NCBI GenBank assembly: GCA_017415515.1
Contig: JAFQGI010000037.1
Coordinates: forward strand, 1 to 43,501
Source of the DNA: Clostridia bacterium
Lineage (GTDB): Bacteria; Bacillota; Clostridia; Oscillospirales; Acutalibacteraceae
Direction of reading: 5' to 3'
DNA: 43,501 nt
Part shown: piece by piece, positions 34,301 through 37,599 of the stretch
Position numbering within the stretch: the first letter of the stretch is position 1
How the letters are laid out: each line of letters begins with the position of its first letter
Notes under the pieces: model-generated
The model's input: the letters and a program-made list of their open reading frames with translations, nothing else
Databases searched by the model: none
Told to the model about the DNA's origin: nothing
Position numbers and translations under genes: made by a program

Positions 34301-34329
34301 TTGCTAATTGCACCATCCTGTGCTATACT
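34301..34329 (+). promoter_or_regulatory. Promoter of the barnase-barstar pair
   Basis: TTGCTA (34301-34306), 17 bases, TATACT (34324-34329). It lies directly after an AATGAGGAATGAG heptamer array. Confidence 0.7.
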
Positions 34330-34358
34330 GAATCTGCATTCCATATTCGGAGGATATT

Positions 34359-35171
34359 ATGAAAAAACGACTGTTATCCTTATGTTTAATACTGGCCTTG
34401 TGCCTGTCTTTGGCGGCCTGCGGCAACGACACTGCTAAGGACACCGCCCCTCCCGCCACCACGACCACCCAAACGCCCACCACCACGGCGCCCACCGTCT
34501 CGGCGGCGGACAAACAGTTGGTGGATCGCGCTTTCGGGTTGGCACGGGGCGACAAGATCGAAGGTGTCACCCTGACGGGTGTGGTCACAGACAGCCAAGG
34601 CTATGCCGCCGGCTACGGCAACGCCACCTTTGACCTGCAGGTGCAGGGCACGAGCGGTGCCAAGACCATCTATTGCTATCGTGTCAAGCCTGCGGATGCC
34701 TCCTGTCCCGAGGTGGCGGTGGGGGATCGGCTCTCCCTCAGCGGCACCATTCAGAATTATAAAGGCACCATCGAGTTTTATCCCGCCACCTACACCCATT
34801 TGGGTGGCGGCGGCACCACCGCCACCACCACCCGCCCCACGAATAGCGGCTCTGCCACCATTGATGAGGACGGCATCTACGACAGCAAGGAGGATGTGGC
34901 GCTGTATATCCACATCTACGGCAAGCTGCCCAAGAACTACGTGACCAAGAGCCAGTACAATAAGAATGACCGCTACCAATGCGTCGGCGGTGACCGCTTC
35001 TACAACAAAGAGGGGCGTCTGCCCGGCGGCGAGACCTATTACGAGTGCGACATCGACACCTACGGCATCACCTCCCGCGGTGCCAAGCGATTGGTGTGGA
35101 CCAAAAGCGGCATCGTCTATTACACCGGCGACCACTACGAAACCTTTACGAAGCTGTATGGAGAGCGATAA
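34359..35171 (+). CDS. Lipoprotein with OB-fold-like domain and barnase-family ribonuclease domain
   Basis: A 270-residue secreted lipoprotein. The signal peptide ends in the lipobox LSLAAC with Cys21. A Thr/Pro-rich linker (22-48) leads to an OB-fold-like domain (about 66-147) and a Gly/Thr linker (148-165). Residues 170-270 are a barnase-type RNase. Barnase residues are conserved: Lys197 in NYVTKS, the catalytic base Glu229 in YECDID, Arg240 and Arg244 in SRGAKR, and the catalytic acid His259 in GDHYETF. It should act on RNA outside the membrane. GGAGGA precedes the ATG. The barstar gene follows after one base. Confidence 0.9.
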   Translation: MKKRLLSLCLILALCLSLAACGNDTAKDTAPPATTTTQTPTTTAPTVSAADKQLVDRAFGLARGDKIEGVTLTGVVTDSQGYAAGYGNATFDLQVQGTSGAKTIYCYRVKPADASCPEVAVGDRLSLSGTIQNYKGTIEFYPATYTHLGGGGTTATTTRPTNSGSATIDEDGIYDSKEDVALYIHIYGKLPKNYVTKSQYNKNDRYQCVGGDRFYNKEGRLPGGETYYECDIDTYGITSRGAKRLVWTKSGIVYYTGDHYETFTKLYGER

Positions 35172-35172
35172 T

Positions 35173-35427
35173 ATGAAAAACGTGACCATTGACTGCGGCG
35201 GCATCACCACCAAGCAGGAGCTGCACGCGCATATTGCGGAGATGCTTCGTTTTCCCGATTGGTACGGGCACAATCTGGATGCCCTGATGGACTGTCTTAC
35301 GGATTTGGAGGATACCACCGTCACCTTGACGGGGCGGGAGAGCGTTGGCTTTGACGCCGCCGGCTTTTGGGAGACCTTTCGGGATGCCGAACAGGAAAAT
35401 CCCCGCCTCACGGTGATCTGGCAATAA
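35173..35427 (+). CDS. Barstar-family ribonuclease inhibitor
   Basis: An 84-residue barstar-like protein. The inhibitor signature is FPDWYGHNLDALMDCLTDL, in which Asp36 and Asp40 correspond to barstar Asp35 and Asp39, the residues that plug the barnase active site. Barstar Trp38 is Met here. It has no signal peptide, so it should stay in the cytoplasm and protect the producer from unsecreted enzyme. GGAGAG lies eight bases before the ATG. It begins one base after the stop of the ribonuclease gene and ends at a bidirectional terminator. Confidence 0.9.
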   Translation: MKNVTIDCGGITTKQELHAHIAEMLRFPDWYGHNLDALMDCLTDLEDTTVTLTGRESVGFDAAGFWETFRDAEQENPRLTVIWQ

Positions 35428-35463
35428 AAAAAGGCTGTGTGCAACGAGCACACAGCCTTTTCT
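35428..35463. terminator. Bidirectional terminator after barstar
   Basis: Perfect 12-bp arms AAGGCTGTGTGC (35431-35442) and GCACACAGCCTT (35448-35459) with A and T tracts. It serves barstar and the convergent surface-protein gene. Confidence 0.9.
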
Positions 35464-35469
35464 ATTGCA

Positions 35470-37599
35470 TTATTTTTGCACTTTCTTGGTGATGAAATAG
35501 ATGGCCACGCCGCCGCCGATCAGCAGCAGCAGGGCGATGATGGGAAGCACCACAAACAGCACCTTAATATCCGCGGGGGATTTCTTGCCGGACGCAGATT
35601 TGGTGGCTTCATACATCACGGTGTAGTCGGAAAAATGCCGGGTGAGGAAGGTGAGTTCGCCGTCACCGACGGTGGTTTTCATCTTTTCCAGCTTGCCGTC
35701 AGGGGAGAGGTAATAGACGGTGTAATTCTCCGCTTTTTTCCCTTTTTCGGGGGTGAAGGGCACCGTCACGGCGGCCATGCCGCCCAAATCGTGGATTTCC
35801 TCGCCGCCGTTGAGCGACAGACGGATCACCGCCGCCACGTTTTTGTTTTGCAGGGTGTTTTGTTGCTTCACAGTCAAATCGGTGACGCGATATGGCTCTG
35901 CCGTCAGCTCCACCGTGTCCCCTTGTGCCGCCTCGGCGGCGGTGGCGAGGACGGAGGCGTCCAGCGTCACGGTGGCGTGGGGCAGGATCACCTGCACGGT
36001 TTTGTCGCTTTGTGCCGCCTCGGTGAGCAGTTGGGTGGGCAGCGCCACGGTGGTGATGCCCGCATCCTCCACCGCCACGGTGAGGGTTTTGTTGCTGTCG
36101 GGATTCAGCAGATGAGCCACGTCCTCGTATTTCACCTGTGCCTTGCCGTTTTCCTTATGAACGGGCACCTTATGAGAGGGCTGTTTGCCGGTGGTGCCGG
36201 TGGTCTGGGAGGGGGTGGTTTCCGAGGGCTCGGTGGCGGAGGGGGTTTCGGTGGGATCGGTGGGCTCGTCCCCGGAGGGGGGCGCCGGATCGGTGGGGTC
36301 GTTGGCGCCGCTGCGCAACACCTGAATGGTGCAATCACCGGGGTCGAAAGCCCCCTCTAAAATATAGGTCTTGCCGGCGGTGAGGGGAGCGGTGAGAGAA
36401 CCGATATTATCCACATAGGTGGCATAACCGGTGCCTTTGAGGATGGCGGTGCCGCCTGCACCCGCCATATAGAAGCGGTAGCTGCCGCTTTCGGCGGGGG
36501 TGAAGGAACATTCCACACCCAGCGATCCGCCAAAGGTCAGCTTGGTGGTCTTGTTCAGTTCCAGCTTGGGACGGTCCTTGACGGTGATGGTTTTAGACAC
36601 CGCTTGTCCGTTCACCGTGGCGGTGACGGTGACGGTGCCGGCTTTCAGCAGCTCCAGCTCGCGGGTCTGCTTGCTGTCCTCGGTGATAAACCGTGCCACC
36701 GAGGGGTCGCTCACCGTCCACGCGGTGGTGAAGGCCTCGAAATACAGCGGCTTGGTGTAGGGGAACAGTTGCATGTGTCCTCCTACGTAGCCGTACAGGT
36801 CGGTTGTCGTGTGGTCATAGGCGGAGCGCAACTCGGCAGAGGTCATCGCCCCCACCTTTTCCAGATGATAGGTGTCGGTGAACCCCTCTTTATCGGGGGA
36901 ACCCTCCCACATACTGAACGTGATGATGTAGGTCTCGCCTGCTGTCATATCCGCCATATAGCCGTGCATAACGCCAAAGGGGTTGGCGATCATCAGCTGA
37001 TTATCCGGCATATCCAGACTTTCCACGCCGTGCCGCAGCCGCACGTCGATTACGGTGTTGCCTCCGTACAGCACGTACCGTCCCGATTCGGCGGGGGTGA
37101 ATTTGTATTTGAATTCCTCGCCCGGTTTGACGGTGATCTTCAACTCGCCGCTGTTGGGGAAGGGGGTGCAGAGATCCACCTCTTTTTTGGGCTCACCGGG
37201 ATGGATGGAGATGGTATCGGTGATGCCGTCGGGCCATTCGGTTTCCCCCTCCCACACATGCATCCGCACAAGGTATCGCGCCCCGCCTTTAAGGCGATAG
37301 CATTCGTCGTTGGGGTTGGCCTTGCCTTGGATTGTGAGGAGCTCGGGAAAGGCGTCTTTATCCGACTCGTCCTCTTGATGAAAATCCACCCGAATCACGG
37401 AGGTGGATTGGCTGATGGTGTGCGGGCCGCTCTCGGAGGGGATATAGAGGAAGAAGCGTTCTTCCCCCGCTTTCATGGTGACCGTCATTTCCGAGCCGTC
37501 CCAGAGTTCGTATTCCGCCGCCACCGAGAGGGGCAACACCCCCAACAGCAACAGCAGGGCAAATGCCACGGATAAGATGCGATTGGTCGTCTTTTTCAT
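35470..37599 (-). CDS. Secreted surface protein with Ig-like region and C-terminal membrane anchor
   Basis: A 709-residue protein with a signal peptide (1-28, ending SVAA). Three related beta blocks carry a PAESGxY motif: IPSESGPH (53-60), FTPAESGRYVLY (167-178) and FTPAESGSYRFY (366-377). A bacterial Ig-like segment lies near 277-341. A Pro/Thr/Glu-rich linker (433-475) precedes a C-terminal module (500-665, ending HFSDYTVMYE) of a kind common in clostridial surface proteins. A hydrophobic helix (about 678-703) and KKVQK anchor it. There is no LPxTG. Ligand unknown. GGAGGAA precedes the ATG. Confidence 0.8.
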   Translation of the reverse strand: MKKTTNRILSVAFALLLLLGVLPLSVAAEYELWDGSEMTVTMKAGEERFFLYIPSESGPHTISQSTSVIRVDFHQEDESDKDAFPELLTIQGKANPNDECYRLKGGARYLVRMHVWEGETEWPDGITDTISIHPGEPKKEVDLCTPFPNSGELKITVKPGEEFKYKFTPAESGRYVLYGGNTVIDVRLRHGVESLDMPDNQLMIANPFGVMHGYMADMTAGETYIITFSMWEGSPDKEGFTDTYHLEKVGAMTSAELRSAYDHTTTDLYGYVGGHMQLFPYTKPLYFEAFTTAWTVSDPSVARFITEDSKQTRELELLKAGTVTVTATVNGQAVSKTITVKDRPKLELNKTTKLTFGGSLGVECSFTPAESGSYRFYMAGAGGTAILKGTGYATYVDNIGSLTAPLTAGKTYILEGAFDPGDCTIQVLRSGANDPTDPAPPSGDEPTDPTETPSATEPSETTPSQTTGTTGKQPSHKVPVHKENGKAQVKYEDVAHLLNPDSNKTLTVAVEDAGITTVALPTQLLTEAAQSDKTVQVILPHATVTLDASVLATAAEAAQGDTVELTAEPYRVTDLTVKQQNTLQNKNVAAVIRLSLNGGEEIHDLGGMAAVTVPFTPEKGKKAENYTVYYLSPDGKLEKMKTTVGDGELTFLTRHFSDYTVMYEATKSASGKKSPADIKVLFVVLPIIALLLLIGGGVAIYFITKKVQK

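What the first reader, a model, noticed from the sequence alone, without database searches (positions are those of the whole stretch)
34359..35427. Lipoprotein-tethered OB-fold/barnase with coupled barstar
The ribonuclease carries a lipobox (Cys21), an OB-fold-like domain and a full barnase active site (Lys197, Glu229, Arg240, Arg244, His259). The barstar gene starts one base after its stop. Classical barnase is secreted and soluble; a membrane-anchored version with a nucleic-acid-binding-like domain suggests a surface RNase for RNA scavenging, competition or defence. Catalytic and inhibitor residues are seen; the role is inferred.
Basis: partly seen in the sequence, partly recalled or inferred. 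Interest (0 to 1): 0.75.

Follow-up and report, generated by a model that had tools for sequence, protein, structure and literature searches.

The report
Surface-tethered barnase with extra OB domain
A Clostridia genome encodes an RNA-cutting enzyme (barnase) that is probably fixed to the outside of the cell by a lipid anchor, with its inhibitor gene right behind it; tethered barnases turn out to be common in related bacteria, but this one carries an extra OB-type domain that was otherwise seen in only one sister species.

Summary
Window 34359-35171 encodes 270 residues with a lipobox (Cys21), an OB-type module (about residues 49-147) and a C-terminal barnase (PF00545, E 6e-14) with all catalytic residues. 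A barstar (PF01337, E 2e-19) starts one base after its stop.

Two corrections. First, tethering is not the novelty: of the 80 closest named relatives, mostly Clostridia plus four spirochaetes, 54 have a lipobox, 24 another N-terminal hydrophobic segment; 61 of 77 assessable have barstar directly downstream. Second, the rare part is the OB module: fused to barnase in 2 of 10 genus genomes (same site beside spoIIP, purifying selection) and in no other ORF examined. The module is otherwise a repeat of surface proteins with dockerin, cohesin, LamG or F5/8C domains, and none of 52 copies has a positive net charge, so nucleic-acid binding is not supported. The barnase is also about 10 residues shorter than most relatives.

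Most likely it is a lipid-anchored RNase that cuts RNA outside the cell, barstar protecting the producer's cytoplasm. A delivered antibacterial toxin remains open. New variant of a known kind.

The parts
34301..34329 (+). promoter-like site (TTGCTA-17-TATACT with TG before the second hexamer)
   Evidence: consensus scan, 2 found against 0.9 expected; weak
34349..34353 (+). GGAGG, ribosome-binding-like, 5 bases before the ATG
   Evidence: read from the sequence
34359..35171 (+). lipoprotein OB-barnase gene, 270 residues; lipobox Cys21; Thr/Pro-rich linker about 22-48; OB-type module about 49-147; second linker about 148-168; barnase about 169-268
34503..34799 (+). OB-type module
   Evidence: match of alignment A1 (contains the window row itself); PF01336 E 0.0013 for the module alone
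34887..35156 (+). barnase domain (residues 177-266)
   Evidence: PDB barnase 1bse residues 7-109, E 8.3e-14; PF00545
35160..35165 (+). GGAGAG, ribosome-binding-like for barstar, inside the 3' end of the barnase gene
   Evidence: read from the sequence
35173..35427 (+). barstar gene, 84 residues, no signal peptide seen
   Evidence: PF01337 E 2.2e-19, PDB barstar E 3.3e-7; one-base gap to the barnase stop also in G526
35429..35461 (.). 14-pair hairpin after barstar, terminator-like
   Evidence: fold -23.7 kcal/mol, z -6.69; not listed by the consensus scan

Best explanation
A two-gene unit. The first gene makes a barnase-family RNase that is exported, lipidated at Cys21 and held on the outer face of the cell on flexible linkers, with an OB-type surface module between anchor and enzyme. 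The enzyme cuts RNA at or near the cell surface (for example RNA from lysed neighbours), for nutrient recovery or protection. Barstar stays in the cytoplasm, is made at the same time by coupled translation, and blocks barnase that folds before export. Shown by sequence: lipobox, domain make-up, catalytic residues, gene coupling, conservation in a second species under purifying selection. Inferred: lipidation, surface display, RNase activity, barstar binding, RNA outside the cell as target, and the OB module as a generic display or binding module.
For: Domains and coupling. Orthologue in G526 at the same site with the same one-base gap; NG86 dN/dS 0.36 whole protein, 0.32 barnase, 0.35 barstar. 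Tethering is the rule in the clade: 54 of 80 lipobox and 24 of 80 other N-terminal hydrophobic segment, against 27 lipobox calls in 1463 other ORFs. Seven active-site positions identical in 81 of 81 relatives. 14 of 77 assessable relatives have no barstar match in the DNA held, yet keep the active site, which fits an enzyme that works outside. The architecture has no recognised delivery domain.
Against: No experiment and no structure model. The barnase is about 10 residues short and has two changes (R69E, D93S) that the orthologue does not share, so activity of this copy is not certain. 61 of 77 relatives do have barstar directly downstream, as expected of a toxin-immunity pair too. A tethered enzyme reaches only RNA near the producer.
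Confidence: 0.5

Rival explanations
1. Antibacterial toxin-immunity pair: the tethered barnase reaches neighbouring cells by contact, shedding or vesicles and cuts RNA inside them; barstar is immunity against kin.
For: Toxin-then-immunity gene order; barstar directly downstream in 61 of 77 relatives; barnase domains are shared with phage Mu F-like proteins in the same bacterial family, a known toxin carrier (PMC5576092 passages; PMC3482391 passages); patchy presence, 2 of 10 genus genomes; lipoprotein nuclease toxins exist in myxobacteria (PMC5562445).
Against: No delivery domain found; an anchor to the producer's own membrane; 14 of 77 relatives with no barstar match in the DNA held; in the tree the phage-type barnases form a separate group.
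Confidence: 0.3
2. The OB module binds RNA and feeds it to the barnase.
For: PF01336 is annotated as a nucleic-acid-binding OB family; the window's module has net charge -1, near the top of the range of -15 to 0, and its barnase core is +4.
Against: Median module charge -7 and 0 of 52 positive; partner domains dockerin, cohesin, LamG, F5/8C, no nuclease in 9 proteins; the orthologue's module is -5; OB is the fastest-changing part, dN/dS 0.44.
Confidence: 0.12
3. The gene is decaying: the shortened barnase with R69E and D93S is no longer active and only the surface module matters.
For: Short K27 to G52 segment, R69E, D93S.
Against: Open frame, catalytic residues kept, dN/dS 0.32 for the barnase and 0.35 for barstar, shortened segment shared with the orthologue.
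Confidence: 0.08

Closest known systems
Barnase-barstar of Bacillus (PF00545, PF01337)
   Same: Catalytic residues, domain family, inhibitor family
   Different: Lipobox and OB module; shorter K27-G52 segment; the Bacillus enzyme is secreted and soluble (recalled)
RNase Sa (PDB 1ay7, with barstar)
   Same: Matches residues 211-265, E 2.9e-4; the same PDB entry holds barstar, so a shorter family member can be bound by barstar
   Different: Soluble Streptomyces enzyme (recalled); no tether or OB module
Barnase toxins of polymorphic toxin systems (PMC3482391, passages)
   Same: Barnase with Imm-Barstar; simple barnase-barstar pairs are mentioned as an incipient toxin-immunity order
   Different: Listed secretion routes are T2SS, T6SS, T7SS, TcdB/TcaC, MuF, PVC; a lipobox is mentioned in the passages seen only for Amoebophilus effectors and Imm65
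MuF phage toxins (PMC5576092, two passages)
   Same: A barnase at the C-terminus and a barstar downstream occur in MuF-like proteins of the same bacterial family
   Different: N-terminal phage head-type part, no lipobox seen; separate group in the tree
SitA lipoprotein toxins of myxobacteria (PMC5562445, abstract and section 8)
   Same: Lipoprotein nuclease with a cognate immunity gene
   Different: Other nuclease families, delivered by outer membrane exchange; homology not tested here

Membership tests
Barnase (PF00545) | Family match above the curated cut-off | tested here: met
   52.7 bits against 24
Barnase (PF00545) | Catalytic residues K27, E73, R83, R87, H102 | tested here: met
   identical in the window and 81 of 81 relatives (numbering recalled)
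Barnase (PF00545) | Complete segment between K27 and G52 (helices 2 and 3, recalled) | tested here: not met
   11 residues against 21-23 in 70 of 73 measured loci; RNase Sa shows that the family tolerates shorter forms (recalled)
Barnase (PF00545) | RNase activity | not testable with these tools
   needs an assay
Barstar (PF01337) | Family match above the curated cut-off and the Y-G-x-N-L-D-A-L-x-D motif | tested here: met
   69.7 bits against 23.4; motif YGHNLDALMD
Barstar (PF01337) | Inhibits the partner RNase | not testable with these tools
   needs binding or inhibition assay
Bacterial lipoprotein | Signal peptide ending in a lipobox with Cys | tested here: met
   LAAC, Cys21; by a home-made rule in relatives
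Bacterial lipoprotein | Lipid actually attached | not testable with these tools
   needs globomycin or labelling test
OB-fold domain (PF01336) | Match above the curated cut-off | tested here: not met
   window protein 16.1 bits against 27; homologous modules reach 33-51 bits in 3 of 9 proteins, so membership rests on homology
OB-fold domain (PF01336) | OB fold in a structural model | not tested
   structure prediction switched off; profile comparison with five housekeeping OB domains not significant
Polymorphic toxin system | C-terminal toxin domain with an adjacent immunity gene | tested here: met
   barnase then barstar
Polymorphic toxin system | Recognised delivery or trafficking domain | tested here: not met
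   none in Pfam or NCBIfam above cut-off; a lipobox only
MuF phage toxin | Phage Mu F-like N-terminal part | tested here: not met
   absent from the window protein, weakly present in L191 (24.6 bits, cut-off 29.6)

The most novel reading that the evidence does not exclude
Membrane-tethered barnases with cytoplasmic barstar are a widespread surface RNase system of Clostridia (and some Treponema) that acts on RNA outside the cell, and in this genus the tether has taken up an OB surface module that gives the enzyme a new binding target.
Probability: 0.3. Interest if true: 0.55.

Novelty: new variant of a known kind. Interest (0 to 1): 0.36.

Why it matters
Barnase is a textbook secreted RNase whose natural job is still not settled (recalled). 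A large clade in which most of the closest members keep an N-terminal anchor and all keep the active site points to work at the cell's own surface and makes that question testable. The minority without a barstar match nearby lets the role of the inhibitor be tested by comparison. The OB-barnase itself is a small, lineage-specific variant.

Tried and rejected
Chance or wrong frame: rejected by family matches, a second species and dN/dS. Misassembly as the cause of the short barnase: unlikely, since G526 shares most of the shortening. Phage or plasmid origin: no match in 50,697 phage records; four records with barnase-only matches among 72,556 plasmid records; three scans of viral contigs gave no relative. 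Anti-phage defence family: no PADLOC match. OB-barnase fusions elsewhere: none in the 80 named relatives kept out of 577 or more; in 398 family and 391 class genomes (samples overlap) only the window's genome gave a match over both domains (G526 is not among the matches, so was probably not in that sample); in 123 loci rescanned, both domains in one ORF only in the window's own two loci. Profile comparison of the OB module with five very unlike housekeeping OB domains: probability 3%, not significant. PDB search with the OB profile: nothing significant. YN00 dN/dS failed for three of four comparisons, so NG86 is given. My lipobox caller is a home-made rule; by eye it misses some of the 24 other cases (e.g. 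L073, L074, L102) and does not separate membrane helices from cleaved signals. Paper searches listed no paper on lipobox barnases by title or start of abstract; only open-licence PMC papers are held and most were seen as listings.

One search looked only directly downstream (16 of 77 without). One search looked at the same 16 over all DNA held: one (L077) has a clear barstar just upstream of the barnase, one (L074) a weak match upstream (E 0.017), 14 have none.

Full report
What is there. Window 34359-35171 (+) encodes 270 residues: a signal peptide with lipobox LAAC (Cys21), a Thr/Pro-rich linker, an OB-type module at about 49-147, a second linker, and a C-terminal barnase (PF00545, residues 197-266, E 6.2e-14; PDB barnase over residues 177-266, E 8.3e-14). 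Barstar follows one base after the stop at 35173-35427 (PF01337 E 2.2e-19; PDB barstar E 3.3e-7). Both genes have GGAG-type ribosome-binding sequences, and a 14-pair hairpin follows at 35429-35461 (z -6.69; not listed by the consensus scan). Upstream and divergent lies spoIIP; downstream and converging lies a 709-residue protein without a Pfam family above cut-off. The genome, 1.5 Mb and 68% complete, has one barnase and one barstar match.

Is it kept? Ten genomes of the genus were searched, the window's included. One other (G526, locus L152) has an orthologue, 68% identical over residues 33-269, with lipobox, OB module, barnase, the same one-base gap and a barstar, next to spoIIP and a homologue of the 709-residue protein. 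In the other eight, the DNA held beside spoIIP (up to 1.5 kb a side) has no OB, barnase or barstar match; most of these genomes are incomplete. NG86 dN/dS between window and G526 is 0.36 for the whole protein (269 codons), 0.44 for OB, 0.32 for barnase and 0.35 for barstar, against 0.23 for spoIIP. G526 also has a second barnase-barstar pair of the phage Mu F-like type.

How unusual is a tethered barnase? They are labelled mostly as Clostridia or other Bacillota, four as Treponema or Spirochaetaceae. By my rule 54 of 80 have a lipobox, 24 another N-terminal hydrophobic segment and 2 neither, both with frames that start at the edge of the DNA held; the same rule of 1463 other ORFs (its printed 55 includes L152). 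Barstar lies directly downstream in 61; 3 are at contig ends; 16 have none there. Of these 16, one has a clear barstar just upstream, one a weak match upstream, and 14 none in the DNA held; all 16 keep the catalytic residues. The DNA downstream was also read by eye for 13 of the 16. In a tree of 108 barnase rows the phage-type barnases of the same bacterial family (19 rows) separate from the tethered clade (89 rows, with the window) at SH-aLRT 100; window and L152 are sisters at 93; 52 of 103 inner branches are weak.

What is unusual is the OB module. It occurs in 0 of the 80 named relatives. Searches with the OB-barnase alignment covered 398 genomes of the family and 391 of the class (overlapping samples); only the window's genome gave a match over both domains. 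Rescanning 123 fetched loci found both domains in one ORF only in the window's own loci. The module itself is common: 21 of 394 genomes of the order hold it, as repeats in surface proteins and lipoproteins, some built as lipobox, Thr-rich linker, OB, other domain (L047, L065). Families found in 9 such proteins include dockerin, cohesin, LamG and F5/8C, and no nuclease. The window's genome has three further matches, in open frames of 797 to 1014 residues. Membership of the OB families rests on PF01336: 16 of 16 modules match and 3 of 9 proteins pass the cut-off, though the window's copy does not, a profile comparison with housekeeping OB domains was not significant, and no PDB chain matched significantly. 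Net charge is 0 or negative in 52 of 52 modules, median -7; the window's is -1 and L152's -5. This speaks against nucleic-acid binding as the module's general role.

The enzyme. K27, N58, E60, E73, R83, R87 and H102 are identical in 81 of 81 relatives and in the window (barnase numbering recalled). The window has 11 residues between K27 and the Gly-Gly motif and L152 has 13; 70 of the 73 measured loci have 21-23 and three have 14-19 (7 of 80 not measured). In barnase this segment forms the second and third helices (recalled). The window also has E at R69 and S at D93; L152 has the usual R and D. As two species share the shortening, it is not an assembly error, and RNase Sa, a shorter family member, is bound by barstar in PDB 1ay7. 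Whether this copy is active must be measured. Its core charge is +4, against a median of -2 for the 80, 22 of which are positive.

How it most likely works. Inferred: export, lipidation, display on linkers, cutting of RNA outside the cell; barstar, made by coupled translation, protects the cytoplasm. For a delivered toxin speak the gene order, the frequent barstar, the patchy presence and the use of barnase by phage-head proteins; against it the anchor, the lack of a recognised delivery domain and the relatives without a barstar match. I put 0.5 on the extracellular enzyme and 0.3 on the toxin.

Known or new. Barnase and barstar are known, also as toxin and immunity protein of polymorphic toxin systems (PMC3482391, passages); lipoprotein nuclease toxins are known from myxobacteria (PMC5562445, abstract, section 8). 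No listed paper described lipobox barnases (searches; mostly listings). It is a new domain combination within a known kind.

Noticed in passing
L073, L080, L084, L089, L091, L092, L093, L094, L096, L108, L116, L118, L136, L145: Tethered barnases with a full catalytic set but no barstar match in the DNA held; a partner elsewhere in the genome or another inhibitor was not looked for.
   Followed up: partly
L077:3115-3393 and L074:3382-3810: Barstar (L077) and a weak barstar-like protein (L074, E 0.017) lie upstream of the barnase instead of downstream; L077 also has S at D93 and a changed R69.
   Followed up: no
L191:437-1552 (G526): A second barnase-barstar pair in the sister species, with a phage Mu F-like N-terminal part; similar pairs in many genomes of the family (L012-L030).
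   Followed up: partly
L187, L188 (G000 contigs 38 and 30): Large surface proteins of the window's own genome that carry OB-type modules with dockerin and, in L187, cohesin domains.
   Followed up: partly
window 35470-37599 (-): 709-residue secreted protein with a C-terminal membrane segment converging on barstar; a homologue sits at the same place in G526; no Pfam family above cut-off.
   Followed up: no
L072, L078, L088, L148: Treponema/Spirochaetaceae assemblies hold tethered barnases inside the Bacillota part of the tree; transfer between phyla or binning errors are both possible.
   Followed up: no
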